From Planctomyces sp. (GTDB lineage: Bacteria; Planctomycetota; Planctomycetia; Planctomycetales; Planctomycetaceae): DNA of 32,839 nucleotides. The notes beneath the pieces were generated by a model. The model was not told the DNA's origin. It saw nothing but the letters and a program-made list of their open reading frames with translations, and searched no databases. The translations under genes and the position numbers were made by a program. How positions within the stretch are numbered: the first letter of the stretch is position 1; every line of letters starts with the position of its first letter. Shown here piece after piece: positions 16,602 to 22,822 of this stretch. The stretch is from the NCBI GenBank assembly GCA_027483405.1, contig JAIXUU010000354.1, forward strand, positions 1 through 32,839, in the 5' to 3' direction.

Positions 16602-18307
16602 GATCGGCTACCTCCTGTAACAGGAACTTGTGTCTCAGAGTCGGCTGCAGAGGCCGTCTCACCTGCCGATTTCAGGAAAATCCCTTCATCGCCCAGGTCA
16701 CCCACAATCAATGCGGCCAGTGCAGGAATCTCACCAGCAATTTCCTGACGGATGGTGGGAGCGTGGAATATACCTGTCCGACCTGCCAGCTCAAAACAGA
16801 TCCGCCCATCGGGCCAGGCATCGCCCGGCGAACGTAAGCCGCGATGAATGGCTTGTGCCAGACCTGCGTGATTGACGAATGTGCCATCACGCTCGGCCCA
16901 CGAAGTGCCAGGCAACACAAATGTCGCCCAGGGAAGAGCGGGGGAATCGAGCAGATCCTGCACAATCACCAGTTTCGCCTTGGCCAGTGACTTGGCCTGC
17001 TCATCGGTGATCCAGCCTTCAGGGGATCCCGCAGTCAGATAGACCGCTTCGAGAGTTCCCTGAGAGACCTGCGCTAAAATCGAGTCGAGCGACTCGACTG
17101 TTCCTCCAAAGTGATGGAGTACCAGTTCCACACCAGCACGGTTCGGGGCTTTTTCGGCTCGAATGGTAAATTTGGGTTGAGGAGCGGCCTGCCCGCGCAG
17201 ATCTTTCGGATACGAATCATCTGCACCCACAACGGGGGCGGGTGTCATCAACAACCTGGCGGCAGGTGAGAGAGACTTCAGATATTTGCAGAGTAGGTAA
17301 GCCTCTTCGACCGTCATGAAGGGAGTCAGCACGACCGCCAGTTTTTCAGGAGCCCTTTTGGCAGCTTCTGTGAGGGCCTGTCGCAAAGCAGGAAGAATTT
17401 GTGGCCAGGAAACGGGGGTGATCCCTGCAGGGAGCTTCTGCATGGGGAACTTCAGGCGATGCTCGGAGTGAATGTACTTCCAGCCGAAGCGACCTTCGTC
17501 GCACATGAACTCGCCCTGTGCGAGCGGGTTTGAGCGTGGCTTGAGTCGGTAGACGACATCTTTGTTCTGATCGACGCGAATGCTGCAACCTGTGCTGCAA
17601 CCGGCGCAGACCGAGTTCTTCCCTTTCAGCCACCACACACGCTGCTCATAGAGAAAATCTTTGCTGCAGAGGGCACCGACAGGGCAGAGATCGACGACGT
17701 TGCCAGCCAGTTTGTTGTTGCAGGGCTTACCAGGGAAGATGTCGATTTCTTCGCCCGAGCCACGGCTGACAACCTGCAACTCAGCGGTGCCGGAGATTTC
17801 ACGGGTGAATCGCACGCAGCGGGTACACATGATGCAGCGATCAGTGAAGAGAGTGATCTGATCGCCGATATAAGGCTTGTCTTTTTTCTGGTTTTTGGGC
17901 TCTGCCAGACGACTGTAAGCCCGGCCGTACTTGAAGCTGAAATCCTGTAGACCACATTCGCCAGCCTGATCACACACGGGGCAGTCGAGAGGATGATTCA
18001 GCAGCAGGTATTCGAGTGTCCCTCGCTGGGCGGCCTGCACCTTGGGGGAATTGGTGACGATCACAGTGCCATCTTTAACGGGAGTCTGGCAGCCGGGGAC
18101 AACCTTGGGAACCATCGCGACGGTTCCATCGGGTTTTTTGTCACCAACTTCCACCAGGCACATACGGCAACTGGCGACGACTGACAAGCTGGGATGCCAG
18201 CAGTAGTGCGGGATTTCCACACCAGCTTTCTGAGCTGCCTGAATACAGTTCAGCCGTTCGTCTGGCTTGAGTTCGACAGGCTGATCGTTGACATAAACTG
18301 TGGGCAT
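16598..18307 (-). CDS. nuoG: NADH-quinone oxidoreductase subunit G
   Basis: NuoG is the largest peripheral subunit and carries electrons from NuoF/NuoE. Cluster ligands are visible in order. The [2Fe-2S] ligands are C36, C47, C50 and C73. A His/Cys cluster is in HPLDCPVCDQAGECGLQ. A 4Fe-4S cluster is in CIMCTRCVRF with a later CPVGALC. A further CxxCxxxCx27C motif (CAGCSTGC...MCDEGRFG) is the pattern of the off-pathway N7 cluster. The molybdopterin-oxidoreductase-like C-terminal part is short, so the protein is 569 residues versus about 900 in E. coli, with no sign of frameshift. Start at 18307 (MPTVYVNDQ). The upstream spacer holds the four-helix-bundle element. Secure. Confidence 0.96.
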   Translation of the reverse strand: MPTVYVNDQPVELKPDERLNCIQAAQKAGVEIPHYCWHPSLSVVASCRMCLVEVGDKKPDGTVAMVPKVVPGCQTPVKDGTVIVTNSPKVQAAQRGTLEYLLLNHPLDCPVCDQAGECGLQDFSFKYGRAYSRLAEPKNQKKDKPYIGDQITLFTDRCIMCTRCVRFTREISGTAELQVVSRGSGEEIDIFPGKPCNNKLAGNVVDLCPVGALCSKDFLYEQRVWWLKGKNSVCAGCSTGCSIRVDQNKDVVYRLKPRSNPLAQGEFMCDEGRFGWKYIHSEHRLKFPMQKLPAGITPVSWPQILPALRQALTEAAKRAPEKLAVVLTPFMTVEEAYLLCKYLKSLSPAARLLMTPAPVVGADDSYPKDLRGQAAPQPKFTIRAEKAPNRAGVELVLHHFGGTVESLDSILAQVSQGTLEAVYLTAGSPEGWITDEQAKSLAKAKLVIVQDLLDSPALPWATFVLPGTSWAERDGTFVNHAGLAQAIHRGLRSPGDAWPDGRICFELAGRTGIFHAPTIRQEIAGEIPALAALIVGDLGDEGIFLKSAGETASAADSETQVPVTGGSRS

Positions 18308-18343
18308 GTTAAGAAGCTTGTTTGAATAGGTGTAAGTAAAAAA

Positions 18344-18820
18344 GGGAAGAAGTAATGAAGGTAAGAAGCCAGAAAATGGGTTCAGAATCTAGATCAAGTT
18401 GCTGGCAATCGTCTGCCTGAAAGCAATGAGCATTCTTGAGACTTCATCTAAATTTGCCTGCATATTCCGGCAGTCACTTTCACTAATGTATCCCAGTTGT
18501 AATGCAATCTCCCAATGAGTATCGAGTTCTGCCAACGAACCAATCGCAATCTGCAGGAAATGAAGCATTGACCATACGCTTTTCCTTCCGAAATGTTCGC
18601 TGAAGCGGAAATTGATGCTCTTCGTATCTGACTTGTCAGTCCAAATTGCTCGTGTCGGGGAAACGCTTCGGTGATCTGATAACAAGCTTTCGCGATATCA
18701 ATCGATTTTTTCCAAACGATCAAATCCCGATGATCACCGACAGCCATGGAGATTCTCCGCTCATCGTGCCAAGTCAACACTTGATTGGAAAATCTGACTT
18801 TTCACCTTCATCCCTTCCCC
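18344..18820 (-). mobile_element. Candidate intervening-sequence-like element with complementary ends, inside the nuo operon
   Basis: The four-helix-bundle pseudogene is bracketed by inverted complementary sequences. In the minus-strand transcript GAUGAAGGUGAAAAGUCAG (18812-18794) can pair with CUGGCUUCUUACCUUCAUU (18372-18354): 15 Watson-Crick pairs, 3 G-U pairs and 1 mismatch over 19. The arms extend outward through a GGGAAG match after a small bulge. Intervening sequences in bacterial 23S rRNA are known to encode this protein type and to have complementary ends. Here the same architecture sits between two mRNA genes. The arms are purine-rich, so chance is not excluded. Boundaries are approximate. 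Confidence 0.45.
18389..18747 (-). pseudogene. Four-helix-bundle protein (23S rRNA intervening-sequence type), frameshifted
   Basis: Two overlapping minus-strand frames together make one typical four-helix-bundle protein. Frame one gives MAVGDHRDLIVWKKSIDIAK, then FGLTSQIRRASISASANISEG. Frame two continues FGRKSVWSMLHFLQIAIGSLAELDTHWEIALQLGYIS to the stop at 18389. The break falls exactly at the family's conserved NI.EG.GR junction. ATG 18747 is preceded by GGAG with good spacing. Inserting a second TTCGGAAGGA at the break restores ANISEGFGRKS perfectly, so one copy of a 10-bp direct repeat was probably lost. Intact proteins of this family accompany rRNA intervening sequences and other loci; their function is unclear. 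It sits in the nuoF-nuoG spacer. Confidence 0.8.
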
Positions 18821-18839
18821 TCTTCTCCCCTCATCACAA

Positions 18840-20171
18840 TTAGTGCGCCCCGATCAGTTCACATGGTTTAATTGTCGAGCGGCCGCTCTGGATGTACTCT
18901 TCGAATTCACTGCGGAATTTGCGGATGGCATTTTTCACAGGCCAGCCGGCACCATCGGCCAGACCGCAAATTGTTGTACCGGGCATCATCCCGATTCCAC
19001 CAGAAACTTCCAACAACAGGTCGAGATCTTCCATCCGGCCCTGACCGCTGCGAATCCGATGCAGAATTCGCTGCATCCAGTTCGTCCCTTCCCGGCAAGG
19101 GGTGCATTGGCCGCACGATTCGTGAGCGAAGAAGCGGGCCGTGTTGTAGACCACATCGACCATACTGGTCTGATCATCAATCACCACGACGGCAGCAGTT
19201 CCAAGACCCAGGCAACCGACCTTTCCTGGACCGTTGAAATCGAGAGGAGTGTCGAGTTCGGAGGGAGCGAGAAAGCCCATGCTGATCCCACCCGGGACGA
19301 CGGCTTTAATCCCGCGACCACCGGGAACACCACCACCATACTCTTGAATCAACTGACGAGCAGTGATCCCCAGCGGAACTTCGTAGCAGCCGGGCTTGTT
19401 GACATGGCCGGAGAGGCAGTAGAGCTTGGGACCATAGCTGCCGGCATCGCGAGGATTGTTCGGGTCAGGCGGTACGCCAATCGATTTGAACCAGTCGATG
19501 CCGCGCTTCAGAATTTGAGTCACGCAGGCCATGGTTTCGATGTTGTTGACGATCGTTGGCTTGCGGAAGAGGCCTTCGATGGCGGGGAAGGGTGGCTTGA
19601 TCCGCGGCCAGGCTCGCTTGCCTTCCAGGCTTTCGATGAGGCCGGTTTCTTCACCGCAGATGTAGGCAGCCGCACCACGGTGCAGGCGGACATCCAGATC
19701 GAAGCCCGAGCCGAAGACGTTCTTCCCGAAGATCCCTTTTTCATAACATTCAGCAACAGCCTTTTGCAGGGCTCGCCAGGCGGCTCCGTATTCATAGCGG
19801 AGGTAGAGGTATGCCGTATTCGAACGGATGGCGTAGCAGCTGATGGCAATCCCTTCGAGGACCTGGTGAGGATCTTTTTCAAGCAGGATGCGATTATTAA
19901 ATGTGCCGGGTTCGCTTTCGTCGCCGTTGACAGCGAGATAGATCGGGCCGGGATGATCTTTGGGGAGGAACGTCCATTTGAGGCCAGTGGGAAAGCCTGC
20001 GCCGCCGCGACCACGCAGGCCGGAATCTTTGACCAGAGTGGTGACTTCGACAGGCGTCATACCGAGCGCCTTTTTGAAGCTTTCGTATCCCCCATCGGCC
20101 AGATAGCTGTCGAGAGTATGACTCTGCTCTTTGTGGATGCGAGCCAGAAGGACAGGTTCATAGGTGGACAT
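18840..20171 (-). CDS. nuoF: NADH-quinone oxidoreductase subunit F (FMN- and NADH-binding)
   Basis: NuoF binds NADH and FMN and hands electrons to cluster N3. Evidence along the 443 residues: the glycine-rich GLRGRGGAGFPTGLKW near residue 50, the FMN/NADH segment VNGDESEPGTFNNRILLEKDP, GAAAYICGEETGLIESLEG, and the N3 cluster ligands ESCGQCTPCREGTNW followed by TTICGLADG. The ATG start at 20171 has only a weak ribosome binding site. Unlike a compact nuo operon, this gene is bracketed by extra modules: 56 bp upstream lies the small protein of the kinase pair, and downstream lies the four-helix-bundle element. Secure. Confidence 0.97.
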   Translation of the reverse strand: MSTYEPVLLARIHKEQSHTLDSYLADGGYESFKKALGMTPVEVTTLVKDSGLRGRGGAGFPTGLKWTFLPKDHPGPIYLAVNGDESEPGTFNNRILLEKDPHQVLEGIAISCYAIRSNTAYLYLRYEYGAAWRALQKAVAECYEKGIFGKNVFGSGFDLDVRLHRGAAAYICGEETGLIESLEGKRAWPRIKPPFPAIEGLFRKPTIVNNIETMACVTQILKRGIDWFKSIGVPPDPNNPRDAGSYGPKLYCLSGHVNKPGCYEVPLGITARQLIQEYGGGVPGGRGIKAVVPGGISMGFLAPSELDTPLDFNGPGKVGCLGLGTAAVVVIDDQTSMVDVVYNTARFFAHESCGQCTPCREGTNWMQRILHRIRSGQGRMEDLDLLLEVSGGIGMMPGTTICGLADGAGWPVKNAIRKFRSEFEEYIQSGRSTIKPCELIGAH

Positions 20172-20227
20172 GGGAAAGCATCCGTGTATCGATAAAGGAC
20201 AATATTTATTGAAGCGACTGGCGTTGT

Positions 20228-20482
20228 TTACTCGTGCGGAAGGTTCTGGATAGAGAGTTCTCGTTTGACCTGATTAGCAATCAATTCGTAGCAAGGCAGA
20301 TTTTTGATTTCTTCGTCTGAGGGCCAGACATACACAATCTTTCCGTCCTGCCACGTACTGGCCGGAATTCCATGCAACCAGTTCTCGCGAACTGCTTCCT
20401 GAACTGCTTCAAAGACAACCTCATCAAAAATGTCGTGGGTATTTTCAGGGTAACGCTCAATCAAATCGATGTGATCTTGCAT
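20228..20482 (-). CDS. Small acidic protein paired with a zeta-like kinase; putative antitoxin or partner
   Basis: The 84-residue protein has no domain I can name. It begins MQDHIDLIERYPENTHDIFDE, is rich in acidic residues, and includes ENWLHGIPASTWQDGKIVYVWPSDEE. The track starts at TTG 20512. ATG 20482 is better: it has GAGAG about 8 nt upstream and gives a 26-bp overlap with the kinase gene instead of 56 bp. The overlap implies coupled translation. Pairing with a zeta-like kinase suggests a toxin-antitoxin or accessory role, but gene order is the reverse of classical epsilon-zeta, and there is no visible resemblance to epsilon. The gene is well supported; its function is not. Confidence 0.7.
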   Translation of the reverse strand: MQDHIDLIERYPENTHDIFDEVVFEAVQEAVRENWLHGIPASTWQDGKIVYVWPSDEEIKNLPCYELIANQVKRELSIQNLPHE

Positions 20483-21053
20483 TGAAAAACTCTCGCCAGA
20501 GATGAGGTTCAAAAACTTCGATTTGTTGAGTTTGGATCCGCGCTATCAGTTTTTGAATACCAATGTTCCGGTTGTCATAAATTCGGCAACTATCCACAAG
20601 TGGTAGATAGATCTCGAATAGATTGTCTATCGTTCGAGAGTATCTACGCCTGACTGTTTCCTCAGGGATGTCGTGTCCTCCTTTGAGAACCCTTTGCCGA
20701 ACTCGTTCCAAAGCGAGTTCAACCGAAGGGAGCCATAGGAAGAACAGTTCGATCCGATAACCTTTCTCTTTCAATTGCTGCAGCCGAACCGCATGTGTCC
20801 TGCTTGAGAGCGTGGATTCAAAGGCGAAACTCACGTGAGTCTTAGCCAATTCCTCCAGACGACTGAGCATCAGCCGACTGGCTTCAATATGAACTGTACG
20901 ATCCGGTGCTTTTGATAATCCTTTCGCTATGACATCTGCATTCACAAATTCCTGAATGCTCAGAGCTGGCAGAATCTTCTCGGCGATTGTCGATTTTCCA
21001 GATCCATTCGGCCCGCCAAACACCACACATTTCGGTTGATCTGGCGGAACCAT
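20457..21053 (-). CDS. Zeta-toxin-like P-loop kinase (COG4185-like)
   Basis: The 198-residue protein shows a Walker A GGPNGSGKST at residues 13-22 and NADVIAKGL with a candidate catalytic Asp near residue 40. FAFESTLSS follows. The lid-like RVRQRVLKGGHDIPEETVRRRYSRT supplies arginines, followed by NLFEIYLPLVDSC and YDN. This is the pattern of the zeta-toxin-related predicted kinases. True zeta toxins phosphorylate UDP-GlcNAc and block cell-wall synthesis; whether this protein does so is unknown. ATG 21053 has a good AAGGA site. It begins only 30 bp after nuoE and overlaps the next gene, so it must be transcribed within the nuo mRNA unless it has its own promoter. All visible motifs are intact. 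Confidence 0.85.
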   Translation of the reverse strand: MVPPDQPKCVVFGGPNGSGKSTIAEKILPALSIQEFVNADVIAKGLSKAPDRTVHIEASRLMLSRLEELAKTHVSFAFESTLSSRTHAVRLQQLKEKGYRIELFFLWLPSVELALERVRQRVLKGGHDIPEETVRRRYSRTIDNLFEIYLPLVDSCRIYDNRNIGIQKLIARIQTQQIEVFEPHLWREFFNARSHRFD

Positions 21054-21083
21054 TGATCTGTTCCTTGACTATGCCCTTTGTGG

Positions 21084-21563
21084 CTAGGCCTTCAATTCAT
21101 TAATCAGTTTGTCTGCTATTTCATGAGTGACATTGTGGACGCAGTCTTCATCGACCAGAACACAGGGAGCCCCATCGCAGACGCCAAGGCATTCCGCGAA
21201 CTCGAGTGTGATCTTGCCATCCTCTGTAGTGCCGCCAGGCGTGACGTGGAGTTTCTCGCACATGTGAGCAAGCAATTCTTCGCCGCCGCGCAGACCACAA
21301 CTGATGCTCCGACAAACCCACACGCGATGCTTGCCCAATGGATTCTCTTCCGTACGGAAGAATTGGTAGAACGTCATCGTGTCATGAACTTCGGAGGGGT
21401 GCAGTTCGAGAAGTTCTGCTATCTCTTCGATCGCACCCGTCGAAACATGGCGGAGTTCATCATGCACTAAATGCAGCGCTGGGAGAGTAACCGCCCGCTT
21501 GTTCGGGTATTTCGGAAACTCCGCAACAATGCGTGCCCGTAAATCATCCGAAAGTACCGTCAT
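21084..21563 (-). CDS. nuoE: NADH-quinone oxidoreductase subunit E ([2Fe-2S])
   Basis: This is a thioredoxin-fold subunit that holds the binuclear cluster N1a beside NuoF. The 159 residues contain an N-terminal helical part (LPALHLVHDELRHVSTGAIEEIAELL), then HDTMTFYQFF, and the cluster ligands CRSISC and ECLGVCDGAP in the usual C-x4-C...C-x3-C arrangement. Its ATG overlaps the nuoD stop by 4 bp. It is followed after 30 bp by the zeta-like kinase rather than directly by nuoF. Secure. Confidence 0.97.
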   Translation of the reverse strand: MTVLSDDLRARIVAEFPKYPNKRAVTLPALHLVHDELRHVSTGAIEEIAELLELHPSEVHDTMTFYQFFRTEENPLGKHRVWVCRSISCGLRGGEELLAHMCEKLHVTPGGTTEDGKITLEFAECLGVCDGAPCVLVDEDCVHNVTHEIADKLINELKA

Positions 21564-22822
21564 CGATCCAACTCCGCAGCAATGATATTCAAACTACCCA
21601 GAATGGCTGGCACATCGCTGAGCATATAGCCCGGCATCAGGTGCTGGAATGTCGCAAAGTGGATGAACGAGGGTGGCCGGCATCGAGCCCGATAGGCACG
21701 CGGTTCTCCATCGGCGACTATATAAAAACCCAATTCCCCATTGGGAGATTCCGTACAGGCGTAAAGTTCTTCCACCGGAACTTTGAAGCCGCGATTGGGC
21801 ATAATCATCTCAAAGTGGTGGATCAAACCTTCAATACTTCGATAGACAGCGGGTTTGGAAGGCAGAACGGACTTCCCCTCCAACTCGACATTCACCGGGC
21901 CTGCGGGGATGTTTTCAATCGCCTGGTTAATAATTTTGATGCTCTCGAGCATTTCCTGCATACGGACTAAATAGCGGGCATAGCAATCGCCATTCTTGGA
22001 AGCGGCAATCTTGAAGTCGAGATCGGCATACGCCAGGTAGGGTTCATCTTTTCGCAGGTCCCGTACCACACCCGAAGCGCGGGCAATAGGGCCGGTGCAG
22101 CCCATGTTGATGGCATCTTCGCGGGAAAGAACACCCACACCTTTGACGCGATCCACAAAAATACGATTCTTCGTCAGCAGACGATCCACTTCGCTGTGAA
22201 TCTTGGGGAAGTTCTTCGCGAATGAGCGAACCTTATCTGCCCATAAGTTATTCACGTCGAAAAGCACACCCCCTACGCGGGTGTAGCTCGTGTGAAAGCG
22301 CTGGCCTGAGGCGTATTCCACAATGTCGTAAATCAATTCCCGCTGCTGGAAGAAATACAGAAAGGCTGTGAATGCTCCCAGGTCCAGAGCGACAGCGCCC
22401 ACACACAACAGGTGGTCATGCAGACGCATCAGCTCGGCCAGGATTGTTCGCAGATAGGTACAGCGGGGAGTGATCTCGATGCCGAGCAGCTTTTCGACCG
22501 TATGGTGCCAGGCAATTTCATTCGCCAGAGGCGAGATGTAATTCATGCGGTCAACAATGGTGACATACTGATTGAAATCGAGTGACTCCCCCAGTTTCTC
22601 AAAACCACTGTGGAGATAACCAATATCGGGTTCGGCCTTAACGACCTTTTCCCCATCGAGCGTCAGAACCAGTCGGAGCGTGGTGTGAGTGGCTGGATGC
22701 TGAGGGCCGAAGTTCAGCGTCCATAGATATTCAGAATTCGCCGCTTCGGCATGTGATGAGGCCGACCCGCCAGCCGCATTGCGGGACGTCGCCGGGTGGA
22801 GCGAAGAGGCAACAACGGGCAT
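21560..22822 (-). CDS. nuoD: NADH-quinone oxidoreductase subunit D
   Basis: This is the 49-kDa-type subunit, related to the large subunit of NiFe hydrogenases, lining the quinone pocket with NuoB. Motifs: LNFGPQHPATHTTLRL, then IGYLHSGFEKLGES, then VDRMNYISPLANE, a central LMRLHDHLLCVGAVALDLGA, and a C-terminal PSFIHFATFQHLM near the stop. The ORF track starts at TTG 22828. ATG 22822 (MPVVASSL) is preferred, with GAAGG 6-7 nt upstream. The first 28 residues are a Ser/Ala-rich extension before the conserved domain. It is a separate gene from nuoC, not fused as in E. coli. Secure. Confidence 0.97.
   Translation of the reverse strand: MPVVASSLHPATSRNAAGGSASSHAEAANSEYLWTLNFGPQHPATHTTLRLVLTLDGEKVVKAEPDIGYLHSGFEKLGESLDFNQYVTIVDRMNYISPLANEIAWHHTVEKLLGIEITPRCTYLRTILAELMRLHDHLLCVGAVALDLGAFTAFLYFFQQRELIYDIVEYASGQRFHTSYTRVGGVLFDVNNLWADKVRSFAKNFPKIHSEVDRLLTKNRIFVDRVKGVGVLSREDAINMGCTGPIARASGVVRDLRKDEPYLAYADLDFKIAASKNGDCYARYLVRMQEMLESIKIINQAIENIPAGPVNVELEGKSVLPSKPAVYRSIEGLIHHFEMIMPNRGFKVPVEELYACTESPNGELGFYIVADGEPRAYRARCRPPSFIHFATFQHLMPGYMLSDVPAILGSLNIIAAELDR

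What the first reader, a model, noticed from the sequence alone, without database searches (positions are those of the whole stretch)
20228..21053. Zeta-toxin-like kinase and small acidic partner embedded in the complex I operon between nuoE and nuoF
Seen: an intact P-loop kinase gene (GGPNGSGKST, GGH.IPEE lid motif) and an 84-residue partner fill the nuoE-nuoF junction with gaps of 30 bp, a 26-bp overlap, and 56 bp. Each has its own ribosome binding site, and both would be co-transcribed with respiratory genes. Known: zeta-family kinases can be toxins controlled by an antitoxin, usually encoded upstream; here the small gene is downstream and unlike epsilon. Inference: either a mobile toxin-antitoxin-like module stabilised by an essential operon, or a kinase recruited to link energy status with growth or envelope synthesis. 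Coupling of such a module to nuo would be unusual.
Basis: partly seen in the sequence, partly recalled or inferred. Interest (0 to 1): 0.72.

Follow-up and report, generated by a model that had tools for sequence, protein, structure and literature searches.

The report
Toxin-like kinase pair inside nuo operon
A probable toxin-antitoxin pair (a zeta-toxin-like kinase and a small partner protein) sits inside the respiratory complex I operon of a planctomycete; related bacteria have lost the kinase, carry the pair in unrelated operons, or carry other toxin-antitoxin pairs at the same spot, so it looks like a lodger in the operon rather than a part of respiration.

Summary
Between nuoE and nuoF lie an intact 198-aa P-loop kinase and an 84-aa acidic partner, with spacings of 30 bp, a 26-bp overlap and 56 bp. 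The kinase is Pfam Zeta_toxin (1.1e-14); its predicted fold (pLDDT 90) matches AvrRxo1, zeta and PezT best. The partner matches no Pfam, NCBIfam, PADLOC or PDB entry, but is a family of its own: in the host family 39 of 50 partner hits lie directly downstream of this kinase, and an Opitutaceae protein fuses the two. It is probably a toxin-first toxin-antitoxin module that lodges in operons, not a nuo regulator. Three congeners keep nuo but have lost the kinase: two retain an intact orphan partner, one a broken partner. The pair occurs at this junction in six genera of the family (seemingly not one clade, AU p=0.036), in 0 of 68 comparable genomes outside it, and in unrelated operons. The nuoE-F and nuoF-G junctions of relatives hold other toxin-antitoxin genes (BrnT, ParE, MazF/PemK, HicAB, PIN); none were recognised in the atp and ribosomal-protein operons of largely the same genomes. 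Toxicity, neutralisation, substrate and co-transcription are untested.

The parts
20457..21053 (-). Zeta-superfamily P-loop kinase, 198 aa (putative toxin)
   Evidence: Pfam PF06414 Zeta_toxin 1.1e-14; AlphaFold2 pLDDT 90.3; Foldseek best matches AvrRxo1 4z8q 8.8e-09, zeta 1gvn/3q8x, PezT 2p5t
20228..20482 (-). 84-aa acidic partner (putative antitoxin); modelled as helix plus beta-hairpin, low confidence
   Evidence: No Pfam/NCBIfam/PADLOC match, no PDB match above chance; family shown by profile, 39 of 50 hits directly downstream of the kinase; fused to the kinase in L013
20457..20482 (-). 26-bp overlap of the kinase 3' end and partner 5' end (possible translational coupling)
   Evidence: ORF coordinates; short overlaps are usual in relatives
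21062..21066 (-). AAGGA Shine-Dalgarno sequence of the kinase
   Evidence: sequence read directly
21084..21563 (-). nuoE, upstream flank
   Evidence: PF01257 1.9e-41
18840..20171 (-). nuoF, downstream flank
   Evidence: PF01512 1.2e-43, PF10589 2.3e-31
18389..18780 (-). Second accessory gene, in the nuoF-nuoG junction: four-helix-bundle (PF05635) gene split over two frames
   Evidence: PF05635 hits on both frames, 1.3e-17 and 4.1e-13; intact in G092 and G094, absent in G093

Best explanation
The pair is a toxin-antitoxin-type module with the toxin first: a zeta-superfamily small-molecule kinase followed by a small partner that neutralises it, translated from an overlapping start. It has lodged in the spacer between nuoE and nuoF, where it can be expressed from the nuo promoter and can resist loss because losing the partner before the kinase would be costly. 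Shown: intact kinase with the catalytic core of the zeta fold, conserved kinase-partner co-occurrence and one fusion, kinase lost with partner still present in congeners, and presence in several unrelated operons. Inferred: toxicity, neutralisation, co-transcription with nuo, and that the substrate is a nucleotide-like metabolite other than UDP-GlcNAc.
For: Zeta_toxin family and fold; the closest solved structures are toxins of toxin-antitoxin pairs. The Walker A lysine and catalytic Asp of zeta align with conserved K20 and D40. Profile of the partner: 39 of 50 hits directly downstream of a kinase; fusion of kinase and partner in Opitutaceae L013, E 4.7e-09. Order of decay fits a toxin with its antitoxin: G093 has a roughly 430-bp deletion that removes most of the kinase with the partner intact (96% aa identity, dN 0.015, dS 0.179); G094 has an intact 89-aa orphan partner with an AAGGAG site and no kinase; G092 has a broken partner only. 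The same pair sits next to sucD, a Gfo/Idh oxidoreductase and a MoxR ATPase in other genomes. Lower GC than nuo. Unrelated toxin-antitoxin genes occupy the nuoE-F and nuoF-G junctions of relatives but were not recognised in atp or S10/spc/alpha operons.
Against: No functional test. The partner model is weak (pLDDT 65) and gives no structural match, so binding to the kinase is not shown. Orphan partners exist (11 of 50), so the partner may have another role. [quoted passage not shown]
Confidence: 0.62

Rival explanations
1. A kinase recruited into the nuo operon to couple respiratory or energy status to growth or envelope synthesis, with the partner as its regulator.
For: Found at the same nuoE-nuoF junction in six genera of one family, including two single-contig genomes (G090, G091); no internal promoter- or terminator-like signal in the window.
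Against: Absent from most nuoE-nuoF junctions of the family; lost in three congeners with intact nuo; in genus g5 only G008 has it, not G007 or G009, and in g51 only G135 does; same pair in unrelated operons; no association with NuoE in 68 kinase-bearing genomes outside the family that have a PF01257 match.
Confidence: 0.1
2. A kinase that modifies RNA, nucleotides or sugars, with an accessory protein; not toxic and not an addiction module.
For: The P-loop kinase fold also matches polynucleotide kinase, adenylate kinase and gluconokinase, more weakly; UDP-GlcNAc residues mostly not conserved; orphan partners are retained.
Against: Patchy distribution, frequent decay and scattered contexts are unlike a housekeeping enzyme; the best structural matches are toxins of toxin-antitoxin pairs.
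Confidence: 0.16
3. An anti-phage defence cassette in which the kinase is the effector.
For: Toxin-antitoxin modules can act in phage defence (general knowledge); variable presence.
Against: No PADLOC model matches beyond weak P-loop similarity; the neighbours examined are metabolic genes, not defence genes.
Confidence: 0.07
4. A decaying passenger with no current role that inserted into a permissive spacer.
For: Kinase lost in three of four congeners; the four-helix-bundle gene next door is also broken.
Against: In the window both genes are intact with a conserved active site; the partner shows low dN relative to dS.
Confidence: 0.05

Closest known systems
AvrRxo1:Arc1 (zeta-superfamily toxin with downstream antitoxin; PMC4938570)
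   Same: Best structural match (4z8q); toxin gene first, small partner downstream; AT-rich relative to host; toxin inactivated or lost while the antitoxin is kept; UDP-GlcNAc residues mostly not conserved
   Different: Kinase is 198 aa, not about 420; partner lacks the Arc1 motif KExFD(x25-27)(Y/L)ExxYY; no effector context
epsilon/zeta and PezAT
   Same: Zeta_toxin Pfam family and fold; Walker A lysine and catalytic Asp aligned
   Different: Partner is downstream and has no match to a known antitoxin family; at least three of the five UDP-GlcNAc-binding residues not conserved
Mycobacterium Rv0366c-Rv0367c (non-canonical PezAT; PMC6362051)
   Same: Zeta/PezT-like kinase reported to lack the UNAG-binding site
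   Different: Its antitoxin is upstream and has an RHH domain
Toxin-antitoxin genes in the nuo junctions of related planctomycetes (BrnT, ParE, PemK, HicAB, PIN; found here)
   Same: Occupy the same or the next junction
   Different: Unrelated toxin families

Membership tests
epsilon/zeta (PezAT) toxin-antitoxin | Zeta_toxin domain with Walker A lysine and catalytic Asp (zeta K46, D67) | tested here: met
   PF06414 1.1e-14; K20 and D40 align with K46 and D67 and are invariant in A1
epsilon/zeta (PezAT) toxin-antitoxin | LID arginine (zeta R158) | tested here: inconclusive
   R117, R121 and R137 are invariant in the family, but the profile alignment to zeta stops before the lid, so equivalence was not shown
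epsilon/zeta (PezAT) toxin-antitoxin | UDP-GlcNAc-binding residues E100, T118, R120, T121, T128 (list from PMC4938570) | tested here: not met
   By the profile alignment T118 has a conserved counterpart (T81); E100, R120 and T121 do not; T128 was not judged. Residue-level mapping is approximate
epsilon/zeta (PezAT) toxin-antitoxin | Epsilon/PezA-type antitoxin encoded upstream | tested here: not met
   Upstream gene is nuoE; partner is downstream with no Pfam match
epsilon/zeta (PezAT) toxin-antitoxin | Toxicity and neutralisation | not testable with these tools
   needs expression assays
AvrRxo1:Arc1 | Kinase fold closest to AvrRxo1 | tested here: met
   4z8q top Foldseek match, E 8.8e-09, TM 0.72 by query; zeta 3q8x is close behind, TM 0.71
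AvrRxo1:Arc1 | Toxin first, small partner downstream | tested here: met
   same order in relatives
AvrRxo1:Arc1 | Arc1 motif KExFD(x25-27)(Y/L)ExxYY in the partner | tested here: not met
   Motif absent from the 84-aa sequence and from the aligned partners, read by eye
Type II toxin-antitoxin in general | Two adjacent genes with conserved pairing | tested here: met
   39 of 50 partner hits next to a kinase
Type II toxin-antitoxin in general | Partner protein binds and inhibits the toxin | not testable with these tools
   complex not modelled; partner model weak

The most novel reading that the evidence does not exclude
In this planctomycete family the nuoE-nuoF and nuoF-nuoG junctions are preferred lodging sites for toxin-antitoxin modules of several unrelated families, a form of operon addiction, and orphan partners are kept under purifying selection after the kinase is lost, as protection against its return.
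Probability: 0.33. Interest if true: 0.7.

Novelty: new variant of a known kind. Interest (0 to 1): 0.5.

Why it matters
It shows a probable toxin-antitoxin pair with an uncatalogued partner family, living inside a core respiratory operon, with sister species caught at different stages of losing it. If the junction is a real hotspot, it gives a natural system for asking whether toxin-antitoxin modules persist by sheltering in important operons, and whether orphan antitoxins are kept as immunity.

Tried and rejected
Nuo-specific regulation: rejected as the main reading because of the patchy distribution and the losses. Single ancestral insertion of the six nuo-embedded kinases: not supported, AU p=0.036, but marginal and with weakly supported branches. 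Association with nuo outside the family: none found among 80 kinase-bearing genomes, 68 of which have a PF01257 match; many of these assemblies are drafts, so contig breaks could hide some. Target-site duplication or flanking repeats at the module: none evident in the window, and comparison with module-free junctions gave no clear boundary. Partner structure search: no match. Literature searches for such modules in nuo, for COG4185, and for zeta toxins in planctomycetes gave nothing relevant in the library held.

Full report
Observation. The two ORFs are as described: kinase 20457-21053 (-), 198 aa, and partner 20228-20482 (-), 84 aa, between nuoE (21084-21563) and nuoF (18840-20171), with a 30-bp gap, a 26-bp overlap and a 56-bp gap. 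NuoE and NuoF were confirmed by Pfam. The kinase has an AAGGA Shine-Dalgarno; the partner's is weak. No promoter- or terminator-like site for the operon strand lies in 18300-21600, which fits co-transcription but does not show it. The module has 46% GC against 52-57% for the nuo genes measured.

The kinase. Pfam gives Zeta_toxin at 1.1e-14. A profile of 35 relatives reaches zeta (1gvn, 9.7e-05) and PezT (2p5t, 1.1e-04) in the PDB. The AlphaFold2 model has mean pLDDT 90.3; the best Foldseek matches are AvrRxo1 (4z8q, 8.8e-09), zeta and PezT. In the profile alignment zeta K46 and D67 correspond to K20 and D40, both invariant among the 35. Of the UDP-GlcNAc-binding residues listed in PMC4938570, T118 has a conserved counterpart (T81), while E100, R120 and T121 do not. 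Carrying over UDP-GlcNAc as the substrate is therefore not justified.

The partner. No match in Pfam, NCBIfam or PADLOC, nor in the PDB by sequence (two chance-level hits) or fold (from a weak model). It is nonetheless a family: many relatives of the kinase, in planctomycetes, Bacteroidota and Omnitrophota, have a small overlapping or adjacent downstream ORF with a helix followed by a short motif around [DN]G. The profile match is clear for the planctomycete, Omnitrophota and a few other loci and weak for most Bacteroidota loci, so the latter are only probable members. In 170 genomes of the family a partner profile (A5) gave 50 hits at E<=2.5e-05, 39 of them directly downstream of a kinase hit (one of the 39 is the kinase remnant of G093). 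In Opitutaceae locus L013 the kinase and partner form one protein.

The neighbourhood in sister species. The three other genomes of the genus have the same nuo order. G093 lacks kinase codons from about 14 to 156 through a roughly 430-bp deletion with a few bases of shared sequence at its ends, and keeps an intact partner (dN 0.015, dS 0.179 against the window). G094 has no kinase and an intact 89-aa partner with an AAGGAG site (dN 0.226, dS 2.1 over 55 codons; dS is near saturation). G092 has a partner with an in-frame stop and no recognisable original start. The counts are small and these paths include time with the kinase, so constraint on the orphans is suggestive only.

Distribution. In the family, 68 of 170 genomes have a match to the kinase at 1e-06 or better, some of them fragments. 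NuoE and NuoF lie next to each other in 70 genomes. The kinase-partner pair fills that junction in six genera: the window, G060, G090, G091, G008 and G135; G135's kinase has GKP in place of GKS/T in the P-loop and may be inactive. It is absent from G007 and G009 of G008's genus. A tree of 40 kinases does not unite the six; the AU test of one clade gives p=0.036, which is marginal. Outside the family, of 80 kinase-bearing genomes, 68 have a PF01257 match, and my reading of the coordinates found none next to the kinase. Other pairs lie beside sucD, Gfo/Idh oxidoreductase and MoxR genes.

The junction as a lodging site. In relatives the nuoE-F junction also holds BrnT (1.2e-28), ParE (4.5e-05) and a weak PIN match (0.0039, below its cut-off); the nuoF-G junction holds PemK/MazF, PIN, HicA with HicB, HicB alone and ParE. 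Counting Pfam-supported toxins I get 13 across nuo junctions. For control I took 40 genomes, of which 37 gave an atp region and 38 an S10/spc/alpha region. Large inserts: 41 of 345 junction-genome pairs in nuo, 17 of 269 in atp, 16 of 739 in the ribosomal operons. I recognised no toxin-antitoxin genes in the atp or ribosomal inserts; this was judged by eye on the ORFs, not by a family search. In atp, genes that look like four-helix-bundle proteins recur. Fisher tests: 13/345 against 0/1008, p=1.6e-08; against atp alone 0/269, p=0.0008; nuoE-F junction 9/64 (this count includes the weak PIN) against atp 0/269, p=2.2e-07. These p-values overstate the case: the 40 genomes were chosen partly because they have nuo inserts, genomes are related, and the hotspot idea arose from the same data. 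I treat it as a lead.

Reading. The best explanation is a toxin-first toxin-antitoxin-type module lodged in the nuo operon. Function is inferred from fold, pairing, fusion and the order of decay. The claim that it belongs to epsilon/zeta proper fails on antitoxin and substrate residues; the claim that it belongs to AvrRxo1:Arc1 fails on the Arc1 motif. It works like them at most. From memory, and untested, the 5,423,075-bp chromosome of G093 recalls Planctopirus limnophila.

Noticed in passing
window 18389-18780 (-): Four-helix-bundle (PF05635, 23S rRNA intervening-sequence protein) gene between nuoF and nuoG is split over two frames; intact in G092 and G094, absent in G093.
   Followed up: partly
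L258, L260, L261, L283 (atpG-atpD junction; L283 also atpA-atpG): ORFs that look like four-helix-bundle (PF05635-like) genes are lodged in the ATP synthase operon of G060, G090, G008 and G005 (recognised by eye, not by a family search).
   Followed up: partly
L195 nuoB-C, L217 nuoC-D, L219 nuoH-I: Uma2-like nuclease genes in nuo junctions of G154, G008 and G107; only the G008 copy was tested, PF05685 5.4e-31.
   Followed up: partly
L103 and L111: In two genera (G001, G048) the kinase pair sits in what looks like the same context, between a similar upstream protein and a CxxCH protein; Pfam gave no match for the latter.
   Followed up: partly
L158: G135's nuo-embedded kinase has GAGKPT in its P-loop, so it may be inactive although its frame is open.
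   Followed up: no
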